Below are positions 18,711-49,604 of a stretch of 64,000 nucleotides of DNA, piece by piece. The notes under the pieces were generated by a model. The model was not told the origin of the DNA, searched no databases, and was given only the letters and a program-made list of their open reading frames with translations. The stretch spans positions 11,434,575-11,498,574 of the forward strand of contig OX393576.1 of assembly GCA_947652605.1 (NCBI GenBank), read 5' to 3'. The position numbers were made by a program, and so were the translations under genes. How positions within the stretch are numbered: position 1 is the stretch's first letter; each line of letters starts with the position of its first letter. The stretch comes from Elmis aenea. Its lineage: Eukaryota; Arthropoda; Insecta; Coleoptera; Elmidae.

Positions 18711-20299
18711 ACAATAGAAGGACTAATGACTAAATAAAAAATACTCTATAAGCTTAGGTATTAAATATTATGTACTACTTATAGAAATTCTCTACTACTG
18801 TTTTTAAGAAACTTTTGGCAAATGGAGCTAAGAAATAGTATTTTATAAATATCAGATTACCACTACTGCTGAATTTTTATTTTAATAAATGATTTGATAG
18901 TTTTATTTATTATTTTTTCATAGAGGTCGCCAAATTGTGCCACAAACAATACTAATTACTCGATTATTAATATTAGTACAATGTACAAATATATTAAAGT
19001 TTAATGATAAAAATGATTTTTACTGTATTTGTTCAATCGACTTTCATTAAATGTTTTTCTGTTCGTAACAATTTTTATAAACGATATGCTACTGTAAGCC
19101 AATAAAAAAAAGCTATTAAAAATATTGCATAACTTTATTCCTTAATTTTCAACTGTTTGGATTCGTTACAAAGATCAAAGAAATTCAGGCAGAACTTTTA
19201 TCTCCACCTATCATCACACTTGGCAAACAAATGCGTCTAGTACAGAACAGAACCTTCAAAATTCACTGTCTCTTGAAAACTTGCTGGTGTTATCCATGAG
19301 TTTATACACCGCCATCTAAAGTTCGTTAGCTAACTCAGAGAAGTTGTGTTGCTGCTGCATAAAAAGCTTAATAAAGAGGACAAACTATTTTAAATACGTT
19401 TGGACAGCCCATAAAAATATATATGCAGTTTTGGGGTACAATTTTTTATTTTAACCTGATTGAAAAACCAGAAAAAAATAATTTATTGCATCATAAATTA
19501 ATTTTTAGACAACTAGCTTTAAGTATTATTGTATTTGTTATTTGTATTTGTTAAAAAGCCTCAATTAAAAGCAAGATAAATGATTGATTTATAATTATGT
19601 ATGAGCTTAATTGAATATCTCATCTTCTTAAAAGGGATCTCTTGCCAAAATGCATTTTGTGTCTTGTGTATCTTTATCAGTTGCAGAAGCGTTTCTTAAA
19701 AAAAAGCGAAGTTACTTTTATTTCAGCTTATTTATAATAAAAAAGCTAGCTTTTTAACTTTTCATACCTATGTAAGTAAATGCTTTCGTTAGAGTAGATT
19801 TTTGAAAAATTAAAAAAAAAAAAAAAACTTGTTGCTTACTGTGGTCTTATTTTAGTGTTAAGAGATTATGGCATTCGATATTTTCGAACCCTTAAACGCT
19901 ACGGGGATATTTTTGCGAACCCTCTTAAAAGACGATAAATAAACAAAAACATTGCAAATCTAATGAAGCAAAACTAAACTTGGAATTTACCATATTATCC
20001 GATCCTCGGCCAAAACGAGATACAAAACCATACTTACAATTAGATAACTGCAACTTTAATTACCAACAAATTATTGAAAGGGCGTTCGTTGTGTCGTCAT
20101 TTTTGACACGAAATCTCTCCCTTGATTTCAAGAACATTATCGAATCATTGTTCAAACATCAACTCAACGATAAGATATCTTATCAAAGTTGTGTGTGCAT
20201 CGAATTATTTCACAGCGACAACGTTCAAGATAGCGAGAAGTGATTTTTTAGTGTACCCCAAAATGTGAAAATGTTGTGATGGTAGAGTTTACGAATAGT
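18711..20299. other. Mostly featureless stretch upstream of the GTPase array
   Basis: AT-rich. One 87-codon frame (19980-20243) starts from a TTG-type position and contains DPRPKRDTKPYLQLDNCN. I do not recognise it and it lacks convincing splice context. Confidence 0.4.
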
Positions 20300-20304
20300 T
20301 TTCA

Positions 20305-20460
20305 TCAGTCGAAATTAAAAGAACTAACGCATCAGAGCAGGTAAGGGAAGCTTGGTTAAAAGCTGTCAACATTCTTAAGGAAAAGTACGACCAAATATTG
20401 AACTGTTTTAGTGCAACTAAATCTTTTGCAGCACATATAATGACTAATTGTATTTAATCG
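20305..20460 (+). other. Conserved segment at unit start: candidate upstream exon
   Basis: A segment repeated in all three units (also about 26028-26175 and 31307-31454) follows TTCATCAG and contains an in-register CAG|GTAAGG. Read through, it stays open for about 50 codons (SSVEIKR then NAS-QVR--WLK then EKY-DQ-LNCFSAT). Units 2 and 3 carry an extra 6 nt relative to unit 1, preserving the frame. It could be a 5' untranslated exon ending at GTAAGG, or part of an unrecognised peptide-coding exon. I do not recognise the protein. Confidence 0.35.
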
Positions 20461-21047
20461 TGATTTAAATTCTTTTGAAATAGAATACGTCAAGATAAAT
20501 TTGTAACGCGATATAAATAAAAATATATCGTCTTGCGTATTCAGGATAGTTTGTTAGGTATTACGTCAAAGTGTAGTGCAAAATTCATCGAACAGTTATC
20601 TATCAAAATTTATTAACCGTTCAGTTTTATTAAAAGAGCTGATAACAACCATAATGCAGGTTATATTCAAAAATTAAGTATTATGATTTAGTCGTTGTAC
20701 GTTACATTGTTAATTAAAATGTACTTAAAGTGAATACGCTGTATTTTGACGAGGAATTATACTTGGTGCAATAAATATATAACTATGTGTTAAACATTGT
20801 TGTTAAAAATAGTTTAGTTGGTAGGGGTTATCCAACGGCTTTAGTTATGCAGGTAAGTAGATTTCTACGGCATATTCTATTGGATTTGTAGCAATGTATT
20901 AATTTTTTGCGAAATCCACATGTTTATTATTATTTTTTTAAGCAAAACAGTACATTTAAGACAATTTCATTTATATAGAAGCCCATCACCAAATAGCAGT
21001 TTAATAAATAATGTGCAAAGTTAAAGACAAAAAAATTCTGGTGTATA

Positions 21048-22543
21048 CAGACAGGGTGTCCCAAATTCGAGTAAATGCATGGGGATCTCGCTTATCTTAA
21101 GAGCTACGAGGTCGGTTAAATTAGGGCAAAGTTGCGAAATTGGATGCTCATCAAATATCTGCAGAGAACATTTTCATAGCTGTCTTAGTTCAAAAGTTAT
21201 TCAAGAAAAACTGACAAAATTTATTTTTGTTTTTTTTGCCCTGTTTCCTACATTTTTTAAGATATCGACAATCTTGAAGCACTTCTCCTTGGCAACTTTT
21301 TACACTTTATATTTTGAGATAACAAAGAATTTCCAACAACGTTTCGTCTCTTCAGAACCGTCATCAACTTATTTTTTTAAACACGGCGAAAAAATTTTGA
21401 TCTCATAGTCTGATAGCATTTTGTCTTCTGATTTCAATGATATATGACACTTAATATCTAAAATGATATTTTACTACAAAAATTTGAGAAAAATTCATTT
21501 TGTCCAATTTTTGAATCAAATTATCTTATACAAAAAAAAAACAATTTTGTTGTGGTTCTGTTAAAACTGTTACTTTGACATTAATATGATTGTAATTAAT
21601 TGTATAATTTGCAACCAGCTAGAAATTCTTTGATAATTATGCTTTTGTAGGAAATTTTTATTTTCACTATGTTCTGGTAGTAAATTTTTAATTTATTTAT
21701 TTATTCGCTATCCCTTTGTGTATAGTGGAGTATTGTTAAAATAATTTTCGTCAATTATGGAAAATAAAAGGTGTTACAAATATGATATTGTAATTGATTT
21801 TAATGAAGTATTAAATAAACTGTTGAAAATTAAAAGGGATGCCATGAGAAAACAAAATGTTGTGTATATTATGACATTTCTCGAATTTCTTGTGTCGATT
21901 GTCATATTTAATAAAATGATTTTCACAAACAAAAAAAACACGTCATATCAAAGAAGTTCTAGCTGGTTGCAAATTATACAATCAATTACGATCATATTAA
22001 CGCCAAAGTGACAGTTTTAATAGAACAACAACCAAATTGTTTTGTTATTTATTTATTTATTTTTTGTATAAGATCATTTAATTAAGAAATTGGACAAAAT
22101 GAGTTTTTCTCAAATTTTTGTGATAAAATATCATTTTAGATATTAAGTGTCATATATCATTGAAATCAGAAGACAAAATGCTATCCGACTATGAGATTAA
22201 ATTTTTTTCGCCCTATTTCAAAAAAATGAAGATGATGTTTCTGAAGAGACGAAACGTTGTTGGAAATTTTATGTTATCTCAAAATAAAAAGCTTAAGAAG
22301 TTGCCATGGAGAAAAGCTTCTAGATTGTCGATATCTTAAAAAATGTAGGAAATAGGACAAAAAAATGAAAATCAATTTTTTCAGTCTTTCTTGAATAACT
22401 TTTGAACTAAGACAGCTATGAAAATTTTCGTTGCAGTTATTTGATGAGTATCCAATTTAGCAAATTTGCCCTCAACTAACCGACCTCGTAGCTCTTAAGA
22501 TAGGCGAGATACCCATGCGTTTACTCGAATTTGGGACACCCTG
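21048..22543. mobile_element. 1.5-kb foldback MITE inserted upstream of the unit 1 start exon
   Basis: Left end CAGACAGGGTGTCCCAAATTC after TA; right end GAATTTGGGACACCCTG before TA. The arms are about 590 bp each (about 21048-21640 and 21935-22543) and nearly complementary. Units 2 and 3 show the empty site (GGTGTATATAATATA) at the same position, proving a TA target duplication. The roughly 300-bp core is unrelated to the arms and has an open frame (21757-22011) starting MENKRCYKYDIVIDFNEVLN that I do not recognise. The right end is about 19 bp from the presumed 3' splice site upstream of the start codon. Confidence 0.95.
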
Positions 22544-22580
22544 TATAATATAGATTTTTGCAGGTAGCAGCAATTTTCGA

Positions 22581-25438
22581 ATGGATCCGAATAAAACTCA
22601 TTTACGTGTAACAGTTGTTGGCGATGGCACAACAGGAAAGACGTGTTTACTTATTGTGTACAAGGATAAAAAGTTTCAAGATTATTATATTCCCACAGTG
22701 TAAGTTGACAAAAAGTTAAAAAAAAAGTTTTCAATAAAAATTGATAATTTATTAAACCTTACAGTGTATTTAATAAACTCAGTTTATATTTACTCCAAGT
22801 ATATTATGTTTGTCTGTTTGATCGACAGTCTAAATTTAATAGAAATAATTTTTAAAAGACAATCAAACCATTTTATAGAAGGATGAGGTGTTCGTTTCAC
22901 TTCAAAGTTCTAAGTTCAACAAAACGGACCAAGTAAAACCAATACCCAGTGTAATATTTAAAAGTTCAACTGTCAGCAGCCACCATAAGTGTTTTGATAA
23001 CACATTCAAATTATTTTACACCGGCATTGTTAGGTTGTTAAATACATTTTGTGTCCGTTATCATTTTCAAAAAAAAAAGAAGCAAATAACCTAGAATCCG
23101 AAAATTTTTATTACAAATAAACCTTACACATTTTAAAACGACTTTAAATAGAAATTTGAAATATGATTACTTATAAATGATTCAAAAGACACGTCACAAT
23201 CTTAAGTCATATTACGATTAAATCTTGTCTTTGATAAGGTGGAGGGGGGAAAACGCTTTTTATTAATATAGACAATATAGAAATCAAATCTAGTAGTCGA
23301 TTTACGTAATCAGTACTGATTTAAAAACAAAAGAGTGCTTAATTTGTGATTTCATAAAATGTAAACTGGGTCACTTTTCTTATGACGCCATATCCCGACA
23401 CTTCATGCGATCTAGTTAAGTGATCTTACACTTTTTGTGATATGAAATTGTTAGTTTTATATTTGAATTGTAAATAAATAAAATTTCCTTAACCTTAGAT
23501 TCAAATTCGCTTTTGCAAAGGCTGACTTCCAAAACAAATCGTACATTATGCAATGAAAAATTTGCAAAACACTAATATAATTATTTAGTAAAATAAAATA
23601 GCAGGAGAGTCCTCAGATTTATAACAGAAATATTTTTGTTCATTTTAGATTTGACTCTTACTCAATGCAAATACGGATTAACGGACAAATATATACTATG
23701 ATACTACAAGATACGGCTGGCCAAGAAGAATATGATCGTTTAAGATCTTTAGCTTATCCAGAAGTGAGTATTAATATTGCACAATTGTTCAAAATAATTT
23801 AAGAAATTAAATAACGCAAAATATTACATTCGTACAAGCGTAAAGGGGCCTTTTTACAAGTTACTTATTGCTTGTAGTTAAAACGGAAGTGTTATTATTT
23901 TGATTTAATATAGAAATTACTGATTACTTGTAAATTTATAATTTGAGAAATATTTAGAATTGCTTGACTGACGATTCAGGTGTGGCTAGAGTTACTTTTA
24001 CCTCCAAAAATTGGTAAGTTAAGTAGGTACATAAAACATTGGTGAAAAATATAGGTTTATATCTGTATCAATAATTTTTTTTAAATTTTTGATTTCCTTG
24101 TTTATTACATTCTCAAAATAAAAGAAGTCTAATTTCCTCGCGCACAAAAACTATATCGGTATAATAAATGTGTCCATTTACTGTTTTTGTATAACTTAAA
24201 AGGAAATAATATTATTACATATCATGTAGATGAAAAATTGTTCCAACAACTTTTAAGCTTTAAGCTTTGATGCGCGGGATAGTTAAAATTTTTGTAGTGT
24301 TTGCAATAAAACATCAAAAACGTCCGTGAGACGATCTTTGAAGTCTTATATTTCAGTTTAAAATAGTTATGACAAAATCGTTGTTTGTTTCAGACTGATG
24401 TTTTTATAATGTGCTTTGCAGTAGACAATAGGACATCCTATCAAAATATTATGACAAAATGGAATCCTGAAGTGAGGCACCATAGGCCGAATGCAAAAAT
24501 TATATTAGTAGGTAAGTCTAAATGCAACTTATACGTCTTGACATATACTGATATGAATTAGTACTGTTCCAATTAATTTTTCATACCAAGGAAAAAGCTC
24601 CAATATTGTGCTTTTTGAGTTTGATATTCTACCAAAATTAAAATACTCACTTTTAAATACATAACAAAAAAATTATGAGTACTAATTTCACCATCAATCG
24701 TTAATATCGTCATTATTTTATGTCAGGTTGAGTCATAAGTCTCGTCAGGAGTCATAAGTCTCGTCAGTGGCTTAAAAGTAAAAAACTGACCTAAATTGGC
24801 AAGTTTTACCACATCCATTACATTCAAGAGACCTTTTTTTCAATAGACTACTATTAGTTTCGTTCCTTGTAAAATTACATTGTTAAAAACACTAATCGAA
24901 ACCATGACAAAGTAGATTTATACCTGCAGACTATTTTCAAATTCAAAAATCAAAGAATTTTACAAAAATGGGATTCAAAAATTGAGATAACGGTGGACAA
25001 CTGTCCATACAAAACAGTAGAAATTTTATACAACACTAATAAAATGAAAGTTACCTACAAATTTGAGTTTAATTTCACCCGTTCTCCACTGAAAAGACCT
25101 GAGGCTCAATCTAATATTTTATTATTTACCAAGAAAGTTAACAATGTTTTTAATTTTGACCTAAGCGCAAACACCAACGACAGTCATCGCTATGAGTCCA
25201 AAATACTTACACCAAAATATTTTTAGCAACAAAATGTGATCTAAGAACAGAGCGTCAAAATTCAGTGACAACAATAGAAGGACAAACCTTAGCACAGAGA
25301 ATCAATGCCGATGGATACGTGGAATGTTCGTCAAAGTTTTTGTACAATGTGAATAGCGTGTTTCAAGAAGCCCTACTCAGTCTTGCTGGACGACCACAGG
25401 CGGTTACAAAACCGAGGAGAATATGCGCGTTACTATAA
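22581..25438 (+). CDS. RhoL-like small GTPase, unit 1 (four exons)
   Basis: Coding exons are 22581-22699, 23649-23763, 24394-24511 and 25227-25438, giving 187 residues, with GTAAGT/GTGAGT/GTAAGT donors and TTTAG/TTTCAG/TTTTAG acceptors. Visible motifs: P-loop GDGTTGKT (14-21), switch I YIPTVFD (36-42), switch II DTAGQEEYDRLR (61-72), TKCD (119-122), ECSSK (150-154) and C-terminal CALL (184-187), a geranylgeranylation-type CAAX box. It therefore should be a membrane-anchored Rho-family GTP switch. The usual Rho insert helix is absent and a VTTIEG segment follows LR, which matches RhoL rather than Rac, Rho or Cdc42. Residue 60 is Gln where Rac has the GEF-determining Trp. No break is seen. It is the copy with canonical P-loop and switches. 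A presumed 5' untranslated exon boundary lies at 22563. Alternative: a fast-evolving Rac-like paralogue. Confidence 0.9.
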
Positions 25439-25760
25439 ATCAAACTCACATTAACTAAAACGAAAGTGAATTAGGTGCGCCTTACAACAAAGTTAATACA
25501 ACAACGTCACAGTCAACCCAAGTACGGTTTACTAATTTCATTGAATCAATGAAAATGATTCAGTTAAACTTAATCGTCAGAAGACGGCTTTGGATAACAC
25601 GTGTTGAAATGTGGCGGGGCTTTGTGCAACCGGACTTTACACTTTCAAAATCTGATCGTGAATTATTTAGCACATTGTTTAAATTAATGTATTACAAGAG
25701 TCTGCCTACAATTACGCTAACTATTAATTAAACCCATTCCATTGTAAATATATTTTATAA

Positions 25761-25766
25761 AATAAA
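25761..25766 (+). promoter_or_regulatory. Putative polyadenylation signal, unit 1
   Basis: AATAAA about 320 bp after the stop codon, conserved at the equivalent position in the other two units. Confidence 0.6.
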
Positions 25767-26667
25767 ACATTAAAAAAACTTAGTTTGAGTAAAACACGAT
25801 AAACATCAATAATATATTTTTGAAGTCGTTGAAGGGAAAACAAGTTCACCCATGTGCGATAGGATTTTTTTTGCTAAAATTGAATATAGATAAGGTATAA
25901 GGAAAAATAATAAGGAGATAATGTGGATAAATTATATGATAAGCCAATCCTGCACAAGCCAGTGTGAAAATACTGCAGGTCGGTATTAATTCTTGATTCA
26001 ATCAGTTTATGAAAAGTCTTCATCAGTCGAAATTAAAAGAATTAACGCATCACAGCAGGTAAGGAAAACTTGGTTAAAAGTTGCGAATATATTTAACGAG
26101 AAGTACGAGTACGACCAAATGTTAAACTGTTTTAGTGCAACATGTTTTACAGTAACTCTTTTGCGGCACATTTGATGACTACATATTTGTATTTAGTCGT
26201 GATTTGAATACTTTTGAAATAAAATACATCAAGATAAATTTGTAACGCGATGTAACTAAAAATACATCGTTTTACCTATTCAGGATAGTTTGTTAGGTAT
26301 TAAGTCATAGTGCACAATTCATCAAACAGTTATCTATCAAAAAGAGCTGATAAGAATCATAATGCAGGTTATATTCAAAAATTCAGAATTATGATTTAGT
26401 CGTTGTACCTTATATTGTAAATTAAAATATAATTAAAGTGAAGACGCTGTATTGAGTTAATAGGAATTACTTAGTGCAATAAATGTATAAGTAGCTGTTA
26501 CAAATTTATTATTATTATTTTTTAAACAAAACAATAGACTTAAAACTATTTTATTTATGAAAAAGCCTATCACCAAATAGCAGTTTAATAACTAATGGGC
26601 TAAGTTAAAAACAAAAAATTTGTGGTGTATATAATATAAATTTTTGCAGGTAGCAGCAATTTTTTTT

Positions 26668-29600
26668 ATGGATCCGAATAAAACTCATTTACGGGTAACA
26701 GTAGTTGGCGATGGCACAACAGGAAAGGCGTGTTTACTTAATGTGTTCAAGGATAAGAAGTTTGAGGAATATTATAGTTCCACAACGTAAGTTGATAAAA
26801 AGTAAAAAAAAAGTTTCGAATAAAAATTGATAATACTATATCTTACAGTGCATTTAATAAACTTACCTACTTTATATTATCTCTAAGTATATAATGTTTG
26901 CCAATTTGATCGACAGTCTCAATTTTATAGAAATTATTTTTAAACGACAATCAAATTATCTTATAGAAGAATGAAGTGGTCGTTTCACTTCAAAAAAAAA
27001 AACTTACTTGAGTTCGAAGTTTAAAAAAAGTAAAACAAATAACCTGTGTAATATTTAGAACTTCAACTGTCAGCAGCCACCATAAGTTTTGTTGATACAA
27101 AATTCAAACTATTTTACACCGGCGTTGTTAGGCTGTTAAATACATTCTGTGTCCGTTAACATTCTCAACAAAAACAAAACGCAAATAACTCAGAAACAGG
27201 TAATTTTAATTACAACTTAAGACTTTGATCAGAAATTTGAATTATGATTTAAAAGAGATTCAGACACACGTTACAATCTTAAGTCGTAAATATATCGTTT
27301 TACGATTAAACATCATCTTTGATAAGGTGGGAAAACAATCTTTATTAATATTAACCCAGTCAAATCTAGTAGGCGATTTACGTAATCAGTCCTGATTTAA
27401 AAACAAAAAAGTGTTTAACTTGTGATTTCATAAAATTTAAACTGGGTCATTTTCATTTTAACAGTGACACAACATGCGATTTAGTTAAGTGATCTAACAC
27501 TTTTAGTGGTATGACATTATTAATTTTATATTTGAATTGTAAATAAATTACATTTCCTTAACCTTAGCTACAAATTCGCTTTTGCAAAGTCTGACTCCAA
27601 AACAAATCGTACATCATGCAATGAAAAATTTACAAAAACCAATATAATTAATTAGTAAAAAAAAATTTGCAGGAAAGTCCTCAGATTTATAACAGAAATA
27701 TTTTTGTTCATTTTAGATTTGACTCTTACTCAATGCAAATACGGATTAACGGACAAGAATATACTATGATACTACAAGATACGGCTGGCCAAGAAGAATA
27801 TGATCGTTTAAGATCTTTAGCTTATCTAGAAGTGAGTATAAATATTGCACAATTGTTCAAAATAATTTAAGAAACTAAATAACGCAAAATATTACATTCG
27901 TACAAGCGTAAAGGGGCCTTTTTACAAGTTACTTATTGCTTGTAGTTAAAACGGAAGTGTTATTATTTTGATTTAATATAGAAATTACTGATTACTTGTA
28001 AGTTTATAATTTGAGAAATATTTAGAATTGCTTGACTGACAATTCAGGTGTGGCTAGAGTTACTTTTACCTCCAAAAATTGGTAAGTTTAGTACATAAGA
28101 CATTGGTGAAAAATATAGGTTTATATTTGTATCAATAATTTTTTTTAAATTTTTGATTTCCTTGTTTATTACAGATATGTTCATTCTCAAAATAAAAGAA
28201 GTCTAATTTCCTCGCGCACAAAAACTATATCAGTATAATAAATGTGTCCATTTACTGTTTTTGTATAACTTAAAAGGAAATAATATTATTACATATAATG
28301 TAGATGAAAAATTGTTCCAACAACTTTTAAGCTTTAAGCTTTGATGCGCGGGATAGTTAAAATTTTTGTAGTGTTTGCAATAAAACATCAAAAACGTCCG
28401 TGAGACGATCTTTGAAGTCTTATATTTCAGTTTAAAATAGTTATGACAAAATCGTTGTTTGTTTCAGACTGATGTTTTTATAATGTGCTTTGCAGTAGAC
28501 AATAGGACATCCTATCAAAATATTATGACAAAATGGAATCCTGAAGTGAGGCACCATAGGCCGAATGCAAAAATTATATTAGTAGGTAAGTCTAAATGCA
28601 ACTTATACGTCTTGACATATACTGATATGAATTAGTACTGTTCCAATTAATTTTTCATACCAAGGAAAAAGCTCCAATATTGTGCTTTTTGTGTTTGATA
28701 TTCTACCAAAATTAAAATACTCACTTTTAAATACATAACAAAAAAATGATGAGTACTAATTTCACCATCAATCGTTAATATCGTCATTATTTTATGTCAG
28801 GTTGAGTCATAAGTCTCGTCAGTGGTTTAAAAGTAAAAAACTAACCTAAATTGGCAAGTTTTACCACATCCATTACATTCAAGAGACCTTTTTTTCAATA
28901 GACTACTATTAGTTTCGTTCCTTGTAAAATTACATTGTTAAAAACCAGGGACTAAAAACGAAAAAAATTCCGTTCGTTTCTGTTCGGAACGAAAACGAAA
29001 TATATCGTTTTCGTTCTTTTCGTTCTAACCGAAAAAATTCTTTTTTCGTTTTCGTGAACCGAAATAATAGCGGTTAAAACCGGTTTTACAATATTTTTTT
29101 GTCGTCAAAAAATCAATTTTTTTTCTAGTCACCACAACCCTCTATAAATACGATAACAATATTTGCGTCTCAACTAAAATATAAACGATGACGATGGGGT
29201 TTGATGCTCACGGACAGCATATTTTAGACTGGCGAACCATCGCCATATTAAATTTACCAAATCGTTAAACACATTAACATTTAACCATTGTATTAAGTTT
29301 AACACCCGTAAGGTGCAAAAACAGAACGTGATTAGGTTAAATTAGACACACGATCTTTATCTAAAAATATGAAAATATAGCAAGTGCTGTTTTAAATTTG
29401 TTTTAGTACCTACTAAAAATCTATGCATTTGAATTAAATAAGATCCTGCTGTAATTATTTAAAAAGACAAAAGAATGAATTCAAGTCGATAATTTACTAA
29501 ATGTTATAAATAAAAAAGATATTAAAAAAAACTTATATTAACTTGAAATATACTTTAACTTTATAGTTTGTACATTACATACCATACAATATACATTTTC

Positions 29601-30706
29601 ACATTCCGTTAAATCTTACTAGCAACACATCTTCCAATAAATCTTCTTTTACATTAGTCCTTTTCGAAGTAAGAATAAATTTTACTTTTATTATGTCTAA
29701 ACGCAAATAAAACATACACATTGATAATATATATCCAATCAAGTGTATATTCTATATTGATGATCTAAAAAACAAATTAGAAATAGAGAATATCTGTACC
29801 GTTAATTGTGTTATACGAAATTGCAAGTATAAACACTAAAGTTGTTAACACATATTCACGTAAATAAATATATGGAGAAAAGTGAAGCTCACTTATTTCA
29901 AGTGAGATTTTTTACTGCCTCGTGGAGTGTCCCCAGCACAGAAGGTAAATTCGCGTTTGTGTTTAACAAATAAAATTGAAATAGCGACAAAACCGGTTAA
30001 AATCGGTTAAAACCGGTTTTGGAAAATATTTATTTCGTTTTCGTTCTTGAACGAAAAATAATAATTTCGTTTTCGGTTTCGTTTTTGTTCTCAAAAAAAT
30101 TTCGGTTAATTTCGTTTAACGTTTTCGTTTTCGTTCCGTTCTCAGTCCCTGTTAAAAAACTCTAATCGAAACCAGGACAAAGTAGATTTATACCTGCAGA
30201 CTTTACAAATTCAAAAATCAAAGAATTTTACAAAAATGGGATTCAAAAATTGAGATAACGGTGGACAACTGTCCATACAAAACAGTAGAAATTTTATACA
30301 ACACTAATAAAATGAAAGTTACCTAAAAATTTGAGTTTAATTTCACCCGTTCTCCACTGAAAAGACCTGAGGCTCAATCTAATATTTTATTATTTACCAA
30401 GAACGTTAACAATGTTTTTAAATTTGACCTAAGCGCAAACACCAACGACAGTCATCGCTATGAGTACAAAATACTTACACCAAAATATTTTTAGCAACAA
30501 AATGTGATCTAAGAACAGAGCGTCCAAATTCAGTGACAACAATAGAAGGACAAACTTTAGCACAGAGAATCAATGCCGATGGATACGTGGAATGCTCGTC
30601 AAAGTTTTTGTACAATGTGAATAGCGTATTTCAAGAAGCCCTACTCAGTCTTGCTGGACGACCACAGGCGGTTCCAAAACCAAAGAGAATATGCGCGTTA
30701 CTATAA
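26668..30706 (+). CDS. RhoL-like small GTPase, unit 2 (chimeric copy, altered P-loop)
   Basis: Exons 26668-26786, 27717-27831, 28468-28585 and 30495-30706 have the same lengths and splice phases as unit 1, giving 187 open codons with CALL at the end. The P-loop reads GDGTTGKA: the Mg-coordinating Thr21 is Ala. Switch I reads YSSTT instead of YIPTV, while exons 2-4 differ from unit 1 at only about ten bases. Exon 1 and intron 1 resemble unit 3; exon 2 onward resembles unit 1. In Ras/Rho proteins, changes at this Thr/Ser (for example N17) weaken GTP binding and give exchange-factor-trapping forms, so a non-cycling or dominant-negative product is possible, as is simple decay. Intron 3 carries a 1.2-kb hAT-like insertion. 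Confidence 0.85.
27676..27683. other. Inferred unequal-crossover junction
   Basis: The octamer AGTCCTCA is shared by all three units. The base just upstream (27675, A) matches unit 3 but not unit 1; the base just downstream (27684, G) matches unit 1 but not unit 3. Diagnostic differences are consistent for long distances on each side. Confidence 0.85.
28946..30151. mobile_element. hAT-like element in intron 3 of unit 2
   Basis: The ends are CAGGGACTAAAAACG and the inverted CGTTCTCAGTCCCTG. Flanking octamers are TTAAAAAC (28938-28945) and TTAAAAAA (30152-30159), and unit 1 shows the uninterrupted site GTTAAAAACACTAATC. Both subterminal regions are dense in CGTTTTCG repeats with ACCGGTTTT blocks. 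No transposase frame remains. The 8-bp duplication and CAGGG ends fit hAT. Confidence 0.9.
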
Positions 30707-31028
30707 ATCAAACTCACATTAACTAAAACGAAAGTGAATTAGGTGCGCCTTACAACAAAGTTAATACAACAACGTCACAGTCAACCCAAGTACAGTTTAC
30801 TAATTTCATTGAATCAATGAAAATGATTCAGTTAAACTTAATCGTCAGAAGACGGCTTTGAATAACACGTGTTGAAATGTGGCGGGGCTTTGTGCAACCG
30901 GACTTTACACTTTCAAAATCTGATCGTGAATTATTTAGCACATTGTTTAAATTAATGTATTACAAGAGTCTGCCTACAATTACGCTAACTATTAATTAAA
31001 ACCGTTCCATTGTAAATATATTTTATAA

Positions 31029-31034
31029 AATAAA
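31029..31034 (+). promoter_or_regulatory. Putative polyadenylation signal, unit 2
   Basis: AATAAA at the position equivalent to the unit 1 signal. Confidence 0.6.
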
Positions 31035-32307
31035 ACATTAAAAAAACTTAGTTTGAGTAAAACACGATAAACATCAATAATATATTTTTGATGTCGTTGA
31101 AGGGAAAACAAGTTCACCCAGCACAATTGAATGTGCGATAGGATTTTTTTTGCTATAATTGAATATAGATAAGGTATAAGGAAAAATAATAAGGAGATAA
31201 TGTGGATAAATTATATGATAAGCTAATCCTGCACAAGCCAGTGTGAAAATACTGCAGGTCGGTATTAATTCTTGATTCAATCAGTTTATGAAAAGTCTTC
31301 ATCAGTCGAAATTAAAAGAATTAACGCATCACAGCAGGTAAGGAAAACTTGGTTAAAAGTTGCGAATATATTTAACGAGAAGTACGAGTACGACCAAATG
31401 TTAAACTGTTTTAGTGCAACATGTTTTACAGTACCTCTTTTGCGGCACATTTGATGACTACATATTTGTATTTAGTCGTGATTTGAATACTTTTGAAATA
31501 AAATACATCAAGATAAATTTGTAACGCGATGTAACTAAAAATACATCGTTTTACCTATTCAGGATAGTTTGTTAGGTATTAAGTCATAGTGCACAATTCA
31601 TCAAACAGTTATCTATCAAAAAGAGCTGATAAGAATCATAATGCAGGTTATATTCAAAAATTCAGAATTATGATTTAGTCGTTGTACCTTATATTGTAAA
31701 TTAAAATATAATTAAAGTGAAGACGCTGTATTGAGTTAATAATAATAATAATAATAAGAAATCTTTATTTAGCTTTTAGCTAATTTTACATTATCTTAAT
31801 GCTGCTTATATTTATTTGTACATATTTTCTTAATTATTAAATCTTAACATTATTTTTCACATATTCGAAACATAGTTTTTTAAAATTTGATATGGAAGTT
31901 GTTTGTTTAATTTCCACAGGTAATTCATTAAAAATCTTGAGCCCTTTGTAGTACAAGGCGTTCTGTGTATTTGTTTTCGTTAGTTTTGGTAGTCTTAAGT
32001 CGTCTTTGTTCCTGGTCTGGTATTCGTGAATGTTACAGTTTTGTATTAAATTTTTAGTCATGTAACGTGGTAAAAAATTATTTATTGCCTTGTATATTAA
32101 AAAAAGGCAATTAAAAGTAATTTGTTGACGTATACTTAACCACTTTAAGGTATTAAGCATTTCGCTTATTTTAGTGTATCTCGAGCATTTTAAAATAACA
32201 CGCATTCCTCTGTTTTGTTGTTTCTGCAATTTATTTAAGTCGCATTCGTTGCATAAGAACAAAATACTCGCACAGTAATCGAAGTGTGGAGCAATTAGTG
32301 ACCTATA

Positions 32308-33857
32308 CAGGGTGCCCATCTTTCTAACCTGTTGTATGGGTAACTCCGTTAATATTAGAGATACAGAAACGTTTAAATTAGCAAATTTGTGCAGAATTTA
32401 AAGAAAAATCTGATTCCATTTTCAAATTTGACCTACGTCATCAACTTTTTGAAATATTTTGAAAAAACTGAAAAAGGTCGATTTTTTCAAACTTGAATAA
32501 TTCCGTAACCATATGAGTTAGAACCAAAATAAAAATTGGCTCTTATAGATGTTTTTACGTAGATTTCAAATATGTTAACGAAATTTTTATAGCACTCTCG
32601 ATTTCCGAGTTATAGCACAAACTTGCATTTTTTTAAATGGAAGTCATAGTTGGCTATGGTCTTATTAAAAAGGATATTTTTTTCTCGTTTCAATGATATA
32701 AGGGTTGTTATGCTTTCCTTTTGTAGTTTTTCTTTAAATAAGCAAAAATCATTTTACATGTTCACTGCCTACTAATAGATGGGAGTTATCCTGTGTTGAT
32801 GTTCTTTTCTTTTCGATGTGACATTTAAGAGTTGTCTCTTATCGTTAGTGTAGCAGTTATTAGCCAGTTACAAATTTTAAAAACAAAACCTCATAATTTG
32901 TCAAATAACTATTATTGTTTGTTATACGTATAAATCTCTCTCTTGTGTTGATCAAAATTTATGATTGACTTTATTGTCAATTTCAAAAACAATGTTTTCT
33001 AATGAAGAAAGCAACGCCATGCTTTTTTATTACTAGGCTTGTAATAGGTAGAAATAGTAGAAATTCAAGTGATATGTATTTGCAAAGATTTATGGAAAGG
33101 GGGCAACCAAGAAAGACATTATTTTCGTTATTAGAAACCAATTTAAAAAAATACAGTTCATTTACAAAATCCAAAGGTTTGAAAATTAAATTTAAGCAAG
33201 AAGATGAAGAGAGAGTTCTGGAATACGTAAATTATAAACCAACATCATCTACCCAGGAGTTGTCCCTTGAATGTGGTGTCGACTGAAAAGGCTGTAACTG
33301 CCTAATAATTGCTACACTAACGATAAGAGACAACTCTTAAATGTCACATCGAAAAAAACAAAACATCAACACAGGATAACTCCCATCTATTAGTAGGCAG
33401 TGAACATGTAAAATGATTTTTGCTTATTTAAAGAAAAACTACAAAAGTAAAGCATAACAACCCTTATATCATTGAAACGAGAAAAAAATATCCTTTTTAA
33501 TAAGACCATAGCCAACTATGACTTCCATTTAAAAAAATGCAAGTTTGTGCTAGAACTCGGAAATCGAGAGTGCTATGAAAATTTCGTTAACATATTTGAA
33601 ATCTACGTAAAAACATCTATAAGAGCCAATTTTTATTTTGGTTCTAACTCATATGGTTCCGGAATTATTTAAGTTTGAAAAAATCGACCTTTTTCAGTTT
33701 TTTCAAAATATTTCAAAAAGTTGATGACGTAGATCAAATTTGAAAATGGCATCAGATTTTCCTTTAAATTCTGCACAAATTTGCTGATTTAAACGTTTCT
33801 GTATCTCTAATATTAACGGAGTTACCCATACAACAGGTTAGAATAATGGGCACCCTG
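32308..33857. mobile_element. 1.55-kb foldback element inside the retrotransposon
   Basis: It is bounded by TA on both sides, begins CAGGGTGCCCATC and ends GATGGGCACCCTG-like (AATGGGCACCCTG). The arms are about 550 bp (about 32308-32870 and 33300-33857). The 430-bp core retains a transposase N-terminal remnant. Removing the element plus one TA restores the host reverse transcriptase frame across the conserved VYRSLIAPHFDYC motif, confirming the TA duplication. Confidence 0.95.
32997..33286 (+). pseudogene. DUF4817-like helix-turn-helix remnant of a transposase
   Basis: It begins SNEESNAMLFYY, then after one frameshift gives CNRNSRNSSDMYLQRFMER and GQPRKTLFSLLETNLKKY, ending VLEYVNYKPTSSTQELSLEC. 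This follows the N-terminal pattern of insect IS630/Tc3-like transposases (M-F-YG...GN---A---Y--RFP-R--P---TF--L, then VL--V--NP-TSTR-IA---GVS). The catalytic domain is absent. Assignment is by pattern, not by search. Confidence 0.6.
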
Positions 33858-34437
33858 TATACTGTAATTTTTGCTGAGAGGCTTAGCTTGTTTGTCAACC
33901 TACCTAGAAAACTAATTTTTTTCGCAACTTTTTTCACAATGTAATCCACATTGCTGTTAAACTTAAGTTTATTGTCTATCATAACGCCAAGATATTTAAT
34001 TTGCGAAACACATTCAAGTTCTTCATTATCTATTTTAACTTTAATGCTTACATCATTTGGTATTGGCCTGTTTCCTATTATCATAAATTTGGTTTTGTCT
34101 GTTTTTAATTTTAATTTGTTAACTTTTAACCATTCTGATACAACGTGTAGGTTATTATTTATCCTATTAATAGCCGACTCTAGGTTTCTATCAGAAGCTG
34201 TGATTAATGTGTCATCTGCAAAGAGATTTAATAGGAATTACTTAGTGCAATAAATGTATAAGTAGCTGTTACAAATTTATTATTATTATTTTTTAAACAA
34301 AACAATAGACTTAAAACAATTTTATTTATGAAAAAGCCTATCACCAAATAGCAGTTTAATAACTAATGGGCAAAGTTAAAAACAAAAAATGTGTGGTGTA
34401 TATAATATACATTTTTGCAGGTAGCAGCAATTTTTTT

Positions 34438-37192
34438 ATGGATCCGAATAAAACTCATTTATGGGTAACAGTAGTTGGCGATGGCACAACAGGAAAGACG
34501 TGTTTACTTATTGTGTTCAAGGATAACAAGTTTCAGGAATATTATAGTTCCACAGCGTAAGTTGACAAAAAGTAAAACAAAAGTTTCGAATAAAAATTGA
34601 TAATACTATATCTTACAGTGCATTTAATAAACTTACTTTATATTATCTCTAAGTATATAATGTTTGCCAATTTGATCGACAGTCTCAATTTTACAGAAAT
34701 TATTTTTAAACGACAATCAAATTATCTTATAGAAGAATGAGGTGGTCGTTTCACTTCAAAAAAAAAACTTACTTAAGTTCGAAGTTTAAAAAAAGTAAAA
34801 CAAATAACCTGTGTAATATTTAGAACTTCAACTGTCAGCAGCCACCATAAGTTTTGTTGATACAAAATTCAAACTATTTTACACCGGCGTTGATAGGTGG
34901 TTAAATACATTCTGTGTCCGTTAACATTCTCAACAAAAAAAAAAAACGCAAATAACTCAGAAACAGGTAATTTTAATTACAACTAAAGACTTTGATCAGA
35001 AATTTGAAATATGATTTAATAGAGATTCAGACACACGTTACAATCTTAAGTCGTAGATATACCGTTTTACGATTAAACATCATCTTTGATAAGGTGGGAA
35101 AACAATCTTTATTATTATTAACCCAGTCAAATCTAGTAGGCGATTTACGTAATCAGTCCTGATTTAAAAACAAAAAAGTGTTTAACTTGTGATTTCATAA
35201 AATTTAAACTGGGTCATTTTAATTTTAACAGTGACACAACATGCGATTTAGTTAAGTGATCTAACACTTTTTGTGGTATGAATTATTAATTTTATATTTG
35301 AATTGTAAATAAATTAAATTTCCTTAACCTTAGCTACAAGTTCGCTTTTGCAAAGTCTGACTCCAAAACAAATCGTACATCATGCAATGAAAATTTTACA
35401 AAAACCAATATAATTAGTTAGTAAAAAAAAATTAGCAGGAAAGTCCTCATATTTATAACAGAAATATTTTTGTTAATTTTAGATTTAACTGGGACTCAGT
35501 GCAAGTAAAGATTAACGGACAACTATATACTATGATGCTACAAGATACTGGCCAAGAAGAATATGATCATTTAAGTGCTTTAGCTTATTCAAGAGTGAGT
35601 ATAAATATTGCACAATTGTTCAAAATAATTTAAGAAACTAAATAGCGCAAATAATTACATTCGTACAAGCGCAAAGTGACCTTTTTACAACGTACTTTTT
35701 GCTTGTAATCAAAAAGGAGGTGCTATTATTCTGATTTTATATAGTAATTACTGATTACTTTTAATTTTATAACTTGAGAAACATTTATAATTGCTTGACT
35801 GAGAGTTGTGACAAGAGTTACATTTACCTGCAATTTTCTTTGCAGCTGTTCAAAAATGGAAGGTTTGGTACATAAAACATTGGTCAAAAACCAAATATGT
35901 TTACATCTGTTTCAAGAATTTTTTAAATTTGTGATTTCTTTGTTTATTACAGAAATGTTTTTTCTTTAAATCAATTAAGTATAATTTATTGTAGCACAGA
36001 GACTATATCAGTATAATAAATGTGTCCATTTACTCTTTTGTATAACTGAAAAGGATATATGTATTTCAAGCTTAAAGCTTTGATGCGCGGGATAGTTAAA
36101 AATTGTGTAGTGTTTGCAATAAAACAACGAAAACCTCTCTGAGACGATCTTTCAAATCTTATATTTCAGTTTAAAATAGTTATGACAAAATCATTGTTTG
36201 TTTCAGACTAACGTTTTTATAATGTGCTTTGCAGTAGACAATAGGGCATCCTATCAAAATATTATGACAAAATGGAATCCTGAAGTAAGGCACCATAGGC
36301 CGAATGCAAAAATTATATTAGTGGGTAAGTCTAAATGCATCGACTTGACATATACTGAGATGAATTAAGAACAGAATTAGTACCGTTCCAATTTTTCATG
36401 CCAAGGAAAAAGTTCAAATATTGAGCTTTTTGTGTTTGATATTTTACCACAATTAAAGTACTCACTTTTAAATACATAACAAAAAAATGAGGAGTACTAA
36501 TTTCACCGTCAATCGTTAATATCTTCATTATTTTATATCAGGTTGAGTCAGTGGCTTAAAAATAAAAAACTGACCTAAATTGGCAAGTTTTACCAGATCC
36601 ACAACATTCACGAGACCTTTCCCCAAAAGACTACGATTAGTTTCGTTCGTTGTTAAAAAACACTAATTGAAACCAGAACAAAGTAAATTTATACCGCCAG
36701 ACTTTTTTTAAATTCAAAATCCAAAGAGTTTCACAAAAAAGGAATTCAAAATTGAGGTAACGATGGACTACTGTCCAAACAAAACAACAGAAGATATATA
36801 CAAGACTAGTAAAATGAAAATTACGTAAAAATTTGAGTTTAAATATACCCCTTCTTCACTGACGAGACTTGGGGCTTAAATTATATTTCATTATTCAACA
36901 AGAACGTTAAAAATGTTTTTAAATTTGATCTAAGCACAAACAGCAACGACAGTTATTGCTATAAGCACAAAATACTTACACCAAAATATTTTTAGCAACA
37001 AAATGTGATCTAAGAACAGAGCTTCAAAATTCAGTGACAACAATAGAAGGACAAACCTTAGCACAAAGAATCAATGCCGATGGATACGTGGAATGTTCGT
37101 CAAAGGATTTGTACAATGTGAATAGGGTATTTCAAGAAGCCCTACTCAGTCTTGCTAGAAGATCACAGGAGAGAATATGCGCTTTACTATAA
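34438..37192 (+). CDS. RhoL-like small GTPase, unit 3 (diverged copy)
   Basis: Exons 34438-34556, 35483-35594, 36207-36324 and 36996-37192 give an open frame of 181 residues. The P-loop GDGTTGKT, TKCD, ECSSK and terminal CALL are kept. Two in-frame losses are visible. Three nucleotides are missing in exon 2, turning DTAGQ into DTGQ and shortening the switch II DxxG motif. Fifteen nucleotides are missing in exon 4, shortening the linker before the CAAX box. Switch II also changes from DRLRS to DHLSA, and switch I reads YSSTAFN. GTP hydrolysis and effector binding are likely altered. Splice sites are intact. The frame-preserving indels suggest it stayed coding for some time after splitting from unit 1; current activity is unknown. 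Its upstream flank carries the truncated retrotransposon. Confidence 0.82.
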
Positions 37193-37514
37193 ACAAACTC
37201 AGATTAACTAAAACGAAAGTGAATTAGGTGTGCCTTACAACAAAGTTTACAACATAACGTCACAGCCAATCAACCCAAGTACGGTTTCCCAATTTCATTG
37301 AATCACTGAAAATGATTCCGTTAAACTTAATCGTCAGAAGACGGCTTTGGATAATCACGTGTTGAAATATGATGGGGCTTTGTGCAACCGGACTTTACAC
37401 TTCTAAAATTTAATCGTGAATTATTTAACTCATTGTTTAAACGTATTACAAGAGTCTGCCTACAATTACGCCAACTATTAATTCAACCCATTTCGTTGTA
37501 AATATATTTTGAAA

Positions 37515-37520
37515 AATAAA
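37515..37520 (+). promoter_or_regulatory. Putative polyadenylation signal, unit 3
   Basis: AATAAA at the position equivalent to units 1 and 2. Confidence 0.55.
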
Positions 37521-37758
37521 ACATTAAAGAAACTTAGTTAATTAAAACACGATAAGCGTTAATAATTTATTTTTAACGTCGTTGAGGGAAAAAAACATGC
37601 TTATTCAGCATAAAATTGTGTGATAGGATTTTTTTGCTAAATTGAAATATAGATAAGGTAAAAGGAAAAATAATAAGTAGATAATCTGGAGAAATTATAT
37701 AATAAGATAAGCCTGCGCAACCTAGTGGGGAAACACTGTAGGTCGGTATTGATTCTTG

Positions 37759-39781
37759 AATGTTATCTTGTGGAAGCATCTCCACAATTTTGTACAGCTA
37801 ACTCGTCTGCAGATGTCGCTTTTATTATTTTATTTGTTCAGTTGTAAACAACTTTTGAAAAACATTTAAAAATAATAGGCATACATGCTAAAATCACATC
37901 AGTCTGTCTACTTTAGTTTTTTAATCATAATTCCAAATATTTTTAATACAAAAAAAGAGTTTAATTAAGCGTTTTAATATTAAACAAATCATATCTTTTA
38001 TTAACAAACATTCAATGTTTTATTAGAGTAGTTTATTTATTTATACATATATTTCATTATGAATAAAATGCAGTATTAAGAATAAGAAAAATATTATTCA
38101 AAGCATCTTTTTCAAGCATAATTTAAATTATTTAAAACTGAATGTTTTTATAATAATGACGAATATCCGAAGAAAAGTTTGTCAAAATATACAAAATACA
38201 ATAGTTCGCACTACAAAAACGCGAGATTGAGCAATTTTGAAAGATTTGCTTAAAGTAATTGCCAATTTATCAACTTCTAATAAATCTTTCCACAACAAAG
38301 TCACAGATTTTTATTTATTTATGTCGTTAAGTAAGAAATTTTGTGCGTACTTTTAAAAATACTGCTTCTTTAGCTACAAAAAAACTGACTTCCAAGAGAA
38401 AATCTTCAAAAACTGCGTTCAAAAGTGTTAAAAAATAACAAAAAACAAGTTCCTGATTTTGGTCTCGTACATTTGAAGAATTTCTACCAATTTTTAACAG
38501 AAATGTTTGAATAATTTAAGTAATTTGTTTTAAAAATAAACCTTAGGGTATAAAGAACACTGGAACTTCGAAAGTTGTTAGAGATACAAGGATGGTTAAC
38601 TTAAAAAATGTGTTTTCGCGTGCCTTGCAAGAAACTGAAAATATACGTGTTGTGATCAATAATTACTAAAACCCCCTTAACAAGTGAAAACGTTTTCCGT
38701 TAGTATTTTTTTGGTTTATCGAGCCTAAGCTTGTAATGTTTGTACTTAAACAAATTGAGCACTGAACCTTTGTACAATTAAGTTGGTTTGGGTCGCTTCA
38801 TCTTAGCATCCAATAAAATAACCATAACTAAAGTAATAAATACGTTCCAAAAATTATTTTCTGAGGTTGAGAAAGTATAAAATAACACCGTTTAAACTCT
38901 AGCATAAAACTTTGAGTCAATATTGAAATCTTAGCTGATGTATTTCGTTAATTTATTACGTAAAGACCAATAAAAAAAAAAAACTCCCACGCCAAATTGC
39001 CCGCAGTGGAGACTTGCCCGAATCATTGTTATCATATTTCAAAACCGTTCGTTCCACTATTTGTAACATGCAAATACGGTCTTGATTTATATTCCGCGGC
39101 TGTCATTTTCTGGGTCATATCATAACACAAAAATACAAAAATCTACACATCTGATAAGAGAAAAACGATGCAGCCTGCCGAACCGAATGAGGAACTATTC
39201 ATTGTTTTACACAATTTATATACCGTCCAATAAATCAGTCTGTTCTCTGGTGACAAAGTTCGTACGCTGCCCAACCCCGCGTGAGAAATTTCCTGCAATC
39301 CTTAGTCCTTCAGGTCAACGTTCTCAGCGGCAGGATGCGCTGTTTTAAATTAAAATTTCAAAGTATGCCAACTCTTATACGTGGCTTTATACATCACTGC
39401 ATGCTAATGATGTTAACAATCTCGAATGGCGAGCGCGAAATTCACCGTAGTTGCTGTTATTTTATCGCATTTAGTTCCGAAATTCAACTAAACTGCAGCA
39501 GTACACCGATTGAGTTTCACAGCTTCGGCAAATAGATCAGAAGCACCAGCACATTTTCAATTTAATTGTGTCTAGATGAAGTCATATAAATTACTAAACA
39601 GGATATGTACTTTATTTGTACCTCGTTATGCATTTAACGTTCAGTGCAGAGCGTTGCAGACATCCTGATTCTAACACAAAGCAATGAACAAAACGCGTTA
39701 TAGAACAAATATAACCTCATTTCGTAAACGCTTAAATAAATAAAGTAATTTATTTATTAATATAAGTAAGTTTCATTAAAG
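37759..39781. other. Stretch without recognisable gene
   Basis: AT-rich to about 38950. From about 39000 to 39540 base composition is more balanced and two overlapping frames (39082-39348, 39281-39535) occur, but they show no domain or splice context I can support. Confidence 0.4.
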
Positions 39782-41170
39782 TGAAGAAGAGCAAATATTT
39801 AATGATGACGCCATACAAGAAAATGAAAAAATTACACATCTCTCCTAAGGAGGTTATGAATAAAATCAAAAATATTAATTCAAAAAAGCTCCTGGCATTG
39901 AACTGATAACGAAGTGTTAAAGCAGCTTCCAAGAAAAGCACTAGTCAAGCTTATCAACCTCATCAATGCTGCATTTAGACCTAAAATACGTGCATAAACT
40001 GTGCAAAGTGGCAGAGATAGTTATGATACCGAAACCAGGTATATCCCCACACGAATCCACATCCTATAGACCAGTTTAACTGTTACCTATCATGTCTAAA
40101 CTTTTCGAGAAACTGCTTCTCAAGAGAATGCAACCCACCATTGAAAGAAAAAATTTGATCCCAAATCACCAATTTGGATTCAGACATAAACACACCACAG
40201 TTGACCAAGTCCATAGGATAACTAATATCATTGAAACAGCATTAGAAGAGAAAAGAGTTTGTTCCGCAGTATTTCTGCATGTGGCGCAAGCATTTGATAG
40301 GGTTTGGCAAAAAGAAGTGCATTATAAATTAAGACATATAACAATACACAGAAATTTTAATGTCTTATTTATCAGAGAGACATTCTGTGATCAGGCAGGA
40401 AGATGCCTACTCTAATCTCAAAGAAATTAAAGCAGGAGTGCCACAGGGTAGTGTCTTGGGTCCAGTCCTTTACCTACTGTTTACTTGTGTTCTTCCAGTA
40501 CTAGAAAACAACACAATAACTACTTTTGCTGACGATACTGCCATCCCAGCTGTCGGCAAAAGCAACGAAGAAACAGCAAACAAGCTGCAAACAGCCATTA
40601 ATCAATTTCAAAGCTGGACAAAAAGGTGGAGGATAAAACATAACGAAACCAAGTCAGTCCAAATTGATTTCACCAACAAACGAATAGAACACGCTCCGGT
40701 AACCATACATAGTCAGATAATACTATACGCCAACACAGCCAAATATCTCGGCTTAACCACTTGACACTAAACTTCGGTGGAAAGTTCATGTCAGAAAAAG
40801 AAAGAGAGGAGTTGGGCATTAGATATCGAAAAATGGCTCTTAGAAAGAAACTCCGCTCTTTCAGTACATAATAAGCTTCTACTATACAAGCAGATACTAA
40901 AACCAGTGTGGACATAAGGTATACAGCTCTGGGGTTGTACCAAAAAAAGCAGTATCAGAGTAATACAAACTTTTCAAAATAAAGTACAAAGGAACATCGT
41001 TGATGCACCCTGGTACATTAGAAACAATGATCTTCATAGGGACCTTGAAGTAGAGTTTGTGGAAAGTGAAATTCAGAAGTTTTCGAGAAACCACAAAGAA
41101 AGCTACTGCAGCACATGAATATCGAGGCTATTCAGCTTCTCGATAACACAAAATAGTCGGAAGACGCAAA
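39782..41170 (+). pseudogene. Jockey-type reverse transcriptase relic, copy 2
   Basis: It opens with SKKAPGIELITNEVLKQLPRK (about 39877), then MSKLFEKLLLKRMQP, LIPNHQFGFRHKHT, SAVFLHVAQAFDRVW (motif A), KAGVPQGSVLGPVLY (motif B), TTFADDTAI with the catalytic box intact, and NTAKYLGL. Breaks include a frameshift near 40350 and stops after 40764. The tail with AIQLLDN ends near 41150. It is the least damaged of the three related relics but not functional. Confidence 0.88.
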
Positions 41171-49587: not shown

Positions 49588-49604
49588 TATATACAATTTT
49601 CAAA

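What the first reader, a model, noticed from the sequence alone, without database searches (positions are those of the whole stretch)
20300..37758. Tandem triplet of fast-evolving RhoL-like GTPase genes, all open
Three adjacent units each preserve four exons with matching splice phases and a CALL prenylation box, while functional sites differ from copy to copy. RhoL is usually a single gene in the insects I know of, so a local array with diverging switches is unexpected and could represent a lineage-specific signalling set.
Basis: partly seen in the sequence, partly recalled or inferred. Interest (0 to 1): 0.88.

Follow-up and report, generated by a model that had tools for sequence, protein, structure and literature searches.

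The report
Beetle RhoL-like gene triplet, middle hybrid
Three side-by-side copies of a beetle relative of the RhoL switch protein are really there, but the middle copy looks like a recent hybrid of its two neighbours and only the first copy keeps every residue checked that the switch needs, so this is probably one working gene with two odd or failing duplicates.

Summary
Three tandem units (20286-37759) each encode a complete Rho-type GTPase in four coding exons, phases 2/0/1, ending CALL. Two things change the reading. First, these are not RhoL proper. They belong to a second, RhoL-related subfamily: 38 non-window rows (26 named, all beetles by my knowledge) plus U1-U3 form one branch (100/100), and all 38 lack the tryptophan before DTAGQ (Rac1 W56). 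Six beetle species show both genes, so 'single RhoL' fails for them. Second, U2 is a chimera: its 5' half matches U3, its 3' half U1, with one switch point in intron 1 (206/217 and 241/257 sites), as unequal crossing-over in a two-gene array predicts. U1 keeps the catalytic residues and has a zero-length protein branch. U2 lost P-loop Thr17. U3 lost Ala59 and altered Pro34, Asp38 and Tyr40. U3's frame was probably kept by selection for much of its history; U2's openness is uninformative because it is young. A haplotype misjoin remains possible. No transcript data were available, and the whole-genome search did not complete in 13 attempts.

The parts
20286..26003 (+). Unit U1 (copy A); conserved copy with G1-G3 and TKxD residues intact
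   Evidence: start and end of shared sequence
26004..31282 (+). Unit U2, chimera: 5' half from copy B, 3' half from copy A
31283..37759 (+). Unit U3 (copy B)
20307..20340 (+). U1 putative 5' non-coding exon: Inr-like TCAGTC around 20307, donor CAG|GTAAGG
   Evidence: read from sequence; alike in U2 (26025-26058) and U3 (31304-31337); the Inr motif is recalled; no transcript
22581..22699 (+). U1 coding exon 1 (P-loop, switch I)
23649..23763 (+). U1 coding exon 2 (switch II, DTAGQE)
24394..24511 (+). U1 coding exon 3
25227..25438 (+). U1 coding exon 4 (TKCD, CALL end)
26668..26786 (+). U2 coding exon 1 (B-derived; against U1, in Rac1 numbering: T17A, I21N, I33S, P34S, V36T)
27675..27684 (+). U2 recombination switch point in intron 1: last U3-like site 27675, first U1-like site 27684
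27717..27831 (+). U2 coding exon 2 (A-derived)
28468..28585 (+). U2 coding exon 3
28946..30151 (+). hAT-like insert (CAGGGAC...GTCCCTG ends) in U2 intron 3, absent from U1
   Evidence: class assigned by eye from its ends
30495..30706 (+). U2 coding exon 4
31741..34227 (+). Insert (ends approximate) in U3 5' intron: inverted 569-bp pair and one RVT_1 match, absent from U2
34438..34556 (+). U3 coding exon 1 (I33S, P34S, V36A)
35483..35594 (+). U3 coding exon 2 (Ala59 codon missing; D38N, Y40D, R68S)
36207..36324 (+). U3 coding exon 3
36996..37192 (+). U3 coding exon 4 (five codons shorter, CALL end)
21051..22544 (.). Foldback insert in U1 5' intron (arms 87.6% alike)

Best explanation
A RhoL paralogue seen here only in beetles was tandemly duplicated once, giving copies A (now U1) and B (now U3). 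Shown: they differ by about 13% in introns. Later, at about one eighth of that divergence, B on one chromatid paired with A on the other and crossed over in intron 1, leaving A, B5'/A3', B. The single switch point and mosaic are shown; the crossover mechanism is inferred. U1 is the working switch: it keeps the catalytic residues and has a zero protein branch (shown), so it should bind GTP, hydrolyse it and be geranylgeranylated at CALL (inferred from family knowledge). B was kept as a coding gene for much of its history, with its scaffold half conserved while its switches changed freely, and now lacks Ala59 and has altered effector-loop residues. U2 carries B's altered switch I plus a new Thr17-to-Ala change, which in Ras and Rac affects the Mg2+ ligand (recalled), and collects replacement changes. 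U2 and probably U3 are therefore failing duplicates, or at most switches that cannot cycle normally (inferred).
For: Mosaic: 206/217 informative sites left and 241/257 right of one split; 0/10000 permutations as good. Exon 1 tree pairs U2 with U3 (98/95), exons 2-4 pair U2 with U1 (93/62, the second value weak). Both halves of U2 are equally old within error: 29/1587 against 28/1885, p=0.50. Unit junctions at 26003/26004 and 31282/31283 are alike. Thr17 is present in 37/37 non-window relatives with that column, Ala59 in 38/38. U1 protein branch 0, U2 0.043, U3 0.15. New changes in U2: exons 9/564 against non-coding 23/3472, p=0.035. U1-U3 exons 3-4 5.1% against introns 13.4%, p=6e-6; exons 1-2 11.3%, p=0.41.
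Against: One-ratio omega for the three copies (0.64) is not distinguishable from 1 (p=0.16), and branch-specific omegas do not differ significantly, so U1's constraint rests on its protein branch and intact motifs, not on a dN/dS test. U3's reading frame (estimated joint neutral probability of intactness 0.004) and exons 3-4 argue that B was not junk for most of its life. New exon changes U2:partners 9:3 against 23:24 in non-coding gives only p=0.19. No transcript, copy-number or read data. The p values are uncorrected and come from small counts. A haplotype misjoin would give the same mosaic.
Confidence: 0.62

Rival explanations
1. Diversified signalling set: all three are expressed and the altered switches of U2 and U3 give new effector or regulator partners under positive selection.
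For: Replacement divergence is concentrated in the switch half: U1-U3 N 22.5/183 in codons 1-78 against 10/244 in codons 79-187, p=0.003, while the G4/G5 half stays constrained. Plain pseudogene decay would not spare half of the gene. U2 exons changed faster than its non-coding DNA (9/564 against 23/3472, p=0.035).
Against: The rate in the switch half does not exceed the intron rate (p=0.41 all sites, 0.65 replacement sites). The changes remove residues near-invariant in relatives, including Thr17 and the DTAGQ spacing. omega is not above 1 in the one-ratio fits (0.93, 0.59, 0.64).
Confidence: 0.2
2. Assembly artefact: two haplotypes of a two-gene array (A-B and A'-B') were misjoined, so U2 is B of one haplotype fused to A' of the other, and only two genes exist.
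For: The 1.5-1.8% divergence between U2 halves and their partners, equal on both sides within error, is within ordinary insect heterozygosity (recalled); inserts private to one partner could be polymorphisms.
Against: Exon differences between the supposed alleles (16/564; 12 replacement, 4 silent) are not lower than non-coding (57/3472; p=0.06 the other way), unexpected for alleles of a gene whose protein branch is zero. New exon changes fall on U2 (9) more than on its partners (3), though 9:3 against 23:24 in non-coding gives only p=0.19.
Confidence: 0.15
3. Natural dominant negatives: U2 (Thr17Ala) and/or U3 bind exchange factors without cycling and damp signalling by U1 or by RhoL.
For: Substitutions at Ras S17/Rac T17 are the classic dominant-negative position (recalled). 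U2 keeps Q61, the TKCD motif and CALL.
Against: U2 is young and its openness is uninformative (estimated neutral survival probability 0.33). No expression data. Further changes (I21N, I33S, P34S) may cost fold or partners.
Confidence: 0.1
4. Gene conversion rather than crossover made U2's mosaic (U1 copied over the 3' half of a U3-like copy in an older triplet).
For: Would also give one switch point.
Against: The A-like stretch runs from intron 1 to the end of the unit and the B-like one from its start; a conversion tract ending at the unit edge is less parsimonious than one crossover that also explains the third copy.
Confidence: 0.12

Closest known systems
Beetle RhoL-like subfamily (Agrilus planipennis 'racC-like' P0001; Abscondita P0002; Tribolium castaneum P0024)
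   Same: Same branch (100/100), W56 lost, KDK motif after the P-loop helix, CxxL end in 31/38 rows; U1 is 72% identical to P0001 over the full length
   Different: Each named species shows one subfamily hit in the two lists of 120 (copies over 90% identical are clustered by the database and would be hidden); no motif-defective copy like U2 or U3 among the 38 rows
RhoL (Drosophila and other insects; beetle RhoL P0018, P0078, P0090)
   Same: Nearest wider group: subfamily plus RhoL rows (and one scorpion row) are one side of a branch, 99/90; shortened Rho-insert region, seen in P0018
   Different: RhoL keeps W56 in 25/25 rows and V14 in 25/25, and has N or H at 39 in 24/25; about 45-53% local identity to U1 in the rows listed
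Rac1/RhoG/Cdc42
   Same: G-motif layout, CaaL end; best solved relatives (Rac1 5fi0, E 3e-48)
   Different: About 10 more residues in the Rho insert; W or F at 56 in the 9 outgroup rows
Tandem arrays of young recombining genes (e.g. Drosophila Sdic, PMC7475035; start of abstract seen only)
   Same: Young local gene array; shuffling of copies by recombination is recalled, not read
   Different: A Rho-family GTPase; array made from two older copies

Membership tests
Rho-family small GTPase | Ras-superfamily G domain | tested here: met
   Pfam PF00071 E 1.4e-44, 9.1e-43, 4.6e-39; best PDB hits of U1 are Rac1, RhoA, RhoG
Rho-family small GTPase | Intact G1-G3 catalytic residues (GxxxxGKT, T35, DxAGQ) | tested here: inconclusive
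   U1 all present; U2 lacks Thr17; U3 lacks Ala59
Rho-family small GTPase | W (or F) at Rac1 position 56 | tested here: not met
   Q in U1-U3; lost in 38/38 non-window subfamily rows, one of which has Y
Rho-family small GTPase | Full Rho insert | tested here: not met
   About 10 residues shorter than Rac1; the RhoL row P0018 is short there too
Rho-family small GTPase | C-terminal CaaX box | tested here: met
   CALL in all three; prenylation itself not tested
RhoL proper (orthologue) | Groups with the RhoL rows rather than apart from them | tested here: not met
   Separate branch 100/100; the seven beetle RhoL rows are their own group 97/93. A sister relation to beetle RhoL is not rejected (p-AU 0.41)
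Beetle RhoL-like subfamily | Falls on the subfamily branch and lacks W56 | tested here: met
Array expanded by unequal crossing-over | Middle copy mosaic with one switch, equal ages of both halves, repeated unit junction | tested here: met
Array expanded by unequal crossing-over | Array physically present (reads span it) | not testable with these tools
   No reads held
Processed (retro) pseudogene | No introns | tested here: not met
   All three coding introns present in each copy

The most novel reading that the evidence does not exclude
Beetles carry an old second RhoL-type GTPase that lost the tryptophan reading exchange-factor identity and so answers to a different activator set; in this lineage it has spun off a family in which crossover shuffled a switch-altered exon onto an intact body, producing a natural non-cycling (dominant-negative or locked) partner of the active switch.
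Probability: 0.12. Interest if true: 0.75.

Novelty: new variant of a known kind. Interest (0 to 1): 0.45.

Why it matters
Rho-family switches are slow-evolving proteins (recalled), so a subfamily whose named members here are beetles only, and which lacks W56 in 38 of 38 rows, is an opening into rewired Rho signalling: position 56 helps set Rac/Cdc42 choice by DOCK exchange factors (PMC10152721, passages). The array gives a natural experiment with ordered steps: one intact switch beside copies that lost the P-loop threonine or the DTAGQ spacing while keeping open frames. The searches listed no paper whose title or shown abstract start concerns this beetle subfamily; one search found no paper at all. 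The library holds open-licence papers only.

Tried and rejected
Processed or decaying copies of one RhoL: rejected for U3, since introns are kept and U3 shows past constraint. Fourth copy in the window: none found by tblastn (two further hits, E 0.39 and 0.80). RNA families at gathering score and tRNAs in the window: none. Branch-specific omega: boundary values in exon 1 and no significant difference. Sister relation of the subfamily to beetle RhoL: neither shown nor rejected (p-AU 0.41). The row labelled Ceratitis Rac1 (P0087) reads as RhoL at its start and Rac at its end; it was in the first tree and was dropped with P0031 and P0159 (long branches) from the second. P0031 and seven further rows were put back or added in the third. 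Structure prediction was not run: the spliced proteins cannot be read from the window in one frame, and a relative would add little. Papers: PMC12326831 (weevil bacteriocytes; RhoL named once, which of the two genes is not said) and PMC10152721 were read as passages only; all others were seen as search listings with the start of the abstract.
Full report
Observation. The window holds three tandem units of one gene on the + strand: U1 20286-26003, U2 26004-31282, U3 31283-37759. A tblastn of a draft U1 protein against the window finds its four exons three times; the only other hits have E 0.39 and 0.80. Spliced models give 187, 187 and 181 residues, no internal stop, GT-AG introns with phases 2/0/1 in all three, and the end ICALL. 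All match Pfam Ras far above cut-off. A putative short 5' non-coding exon with an Inr-like TCAGTC (motif recalled) and a CAG|GTAAGG donor is alike in all units; the shared sequence starts only about 20 bases upstream of it, so U2 and U3 have the 3' flank of the preceding unit, not U1's upstream DNA, in front of them.

What family. The best protein hits are beetles: Agrilus planipennis 72%, then Abscondita and Pyrocoelia (fireflies, recalled) at 68% and an unnamed row at 67%. Six beetle species appear twice in the hit lists, once with a protein close to the window genes and once with an ordinary RhoL: Agrilus (P0001/P0090), Abscondita (P0002/P0018), Harmonia (P0051/P0109), Henosepilachna (P0056/P0065), Tribolium castaneum (P0024/P0078) and Zophobas morio (P0136/P0055). 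In a 69-row tree of hand-picked rows the 34 subfamily rows including the window are one side of a branch (100/100, stem 0.99). After dropping three rows (a chimeric record and two long branches) 33 rows again form one branch (100/100), and seven beetle RhoL rows form another (97/93). With all 38 non-window subfamily rows the 41 rows still form one branch (100/100). Subfamily plus RhoL rows (with one scorpion ced-10-named row) stand together against Rac, Rho and Cdc42 rows (99/90). A sister relation to beetle RhoL is neither shown nor rejected (p-AU 0.41). The 26 named members are all beetles by my knowledge; the four looked up belong to four infraorders of Polyphaga; 12 rows are unnamed. Only the best 120 hits of each search were seen, so absence from other insects or from Adephaga was not tested.

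Diagnostic residues. Counting 38 non-window subfamily rows, the residue before DTAGQ (Rac1 W56) is S in 23, Q in 12, C, Y and T in one each; it is W in 25/25 RhoL rows and W (8) or F (1) in the 9 outgroup rows. Position 56 helps decide which DOCK exchange factors activate Rac or Cdc42 (PMC10152721, passages). The subfamily otherwise keeps GKT (37/37 rows with that column), T35 (37/37), DTAGQ (38/38) and a CxxL end in 31/38, so its members should be working switches with changed partners (inference).

The mosaic. Aligned with inserts left out, U2 differs from U3 by 0.75% in the 5' region, 5.0% in exon 1 and 2.6% in intron 1, but from U1 by 13.4%, 10.9% and 14.3% there. From exon 2 on, it differs from U1 by 0-3.3% per segment and from U3 by 12-16% in exon 2, introns 2-3 and the 3' flank (4.2% in exon 3, 6.1% in exon 4). 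Of 474 informative sites one split explains all but 27 (206/217 left, 241/257 right), between U2 positions 27675 and 27684, just upstream of exon 2; no permutation in 10000 reached it. Protein trees of the two parts disagree in the same way: U2 with U3 for exon 1 (98/95), with U1 for exons 2-4 (93/62, weaker). The two halves are equally old within error (29/1587 and 28/1885, p=0.50), about one eighth of the A-B intron divergence of 13.4%. The junction between units is the same at both places. One unequal crossover in a two-gene array predicts exactly A, B5'/A3', B. Within the 5' half the 5' region is less diverged than intron 1 (p=0.007), which I cannot explain.

Are the copies functional? A and B: 51 indel events in 3337 non-coding bases, 37 not multiples of three, against two in-frame events in the exons. 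Neutral survival of U3's frame, stops and splice sites is estimated at 0.004; of U2's since the crossover at 0.33, assuming half of each divergence on the lineage. So U3 was probably kept under constraint for much of its history, and U2's open frame is uninformative. U1-U3 divergence is 11.3% in exons 1-2 (introns 13.4%, p=0.41) and 5.1% in exons 3-4 (p=6e-6), so the switch half ran free while the base-binding half was held. Overall omega is 0.64, not different from 1 (p=0.16). Since the crossover U2 gained 9 exon changes in 564 bases against 23 in 3472 non-coding (p=0.035), its partners 3 and 24 (p=1.0); the direct contrast 9:3 against 23:24 is not significant (p=0.19). Two exon sites could not be assigned. 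U1's protein branch is 0 on every tree, although one of its own post-crossover exon changes alters a residue.

Lesions. U2 against U1: T17A, I21N, I33S, P34S, V36T. U3: loss of Ala59, with I33S, P34S, V36A, D38N, Y40D and R68S. Thr17 binds Mg2+ and substitutions there are the classic dominant-negative change; D38 and Y40 are effector-loop residues (family knowledge, recalled). U1 has none of these.

Verdict. One probably working gene of a beetle RhoL-like subfamily on which my paper searches found nothing, beside an older switch-altered duplicate and a young recombinant. The strongest open alternatives are a truly diversified set and a haplotype misjoin. Neither reads, transcripts nor the rest of the genome could be consulted (genome search busy in all 13 attempts), so the presence of ordinary RhoL elsewhere in this genome is untested.

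Noticed in passing
window 54775-55296 (-): ORF with ...YYPEGGWGWVIIVCSVLIHVLNHGLQLS..., resembling the start of an SLC16 monocarboxylate transporter (motif recalled; no Pfam hit); with 57401-57850 (-) perhaps exons of one downstream gene.
   Followed up: partly
window 21051-22544 and 49468-49600: Foldback element ending in ACAGGGTGTCCCAAATTCGA inside U1's 5' intron; a related piece lies at 49.5 kb.
   Followed up: partly
window 31741-34227: Insert in U3 with a 569-bp inverted pair 97% alike (32304-32872/33293-33861) and a reverse-transcriptase match at 33767-34237 (-); the ORF at 31840-32397 (-) has no Pfam hit.
   Followed up: no
window 3214-3642 (-), 9332-9730 (+), 40080-40412 (+), 6978-7277 (+): Three fragments matching reverse transcriptase (RVT_1) and one hAT dimerisation domain: a transposon-rich region.
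   Followed up: no
protein P0087 (record named Rac1, Ceratitis capitata): The public record reads as RhoL in its first part and Rac1 in its second: a likely chimeric transcript model (seen; compared by eye).
   Followed up: partly
proteins P0071 and P0074 (Nilaparvata lugens): Two RhoL-named proteins in one planthopper, another case of more than one RhoL-type gene in an insect.
   Followed up: no
protein P0031 (unnamed source): A divergent subfamily member with HHSSTVFD in switch I, the same Pro34-to-Ser change as U2 and U3.
   Followed up: no
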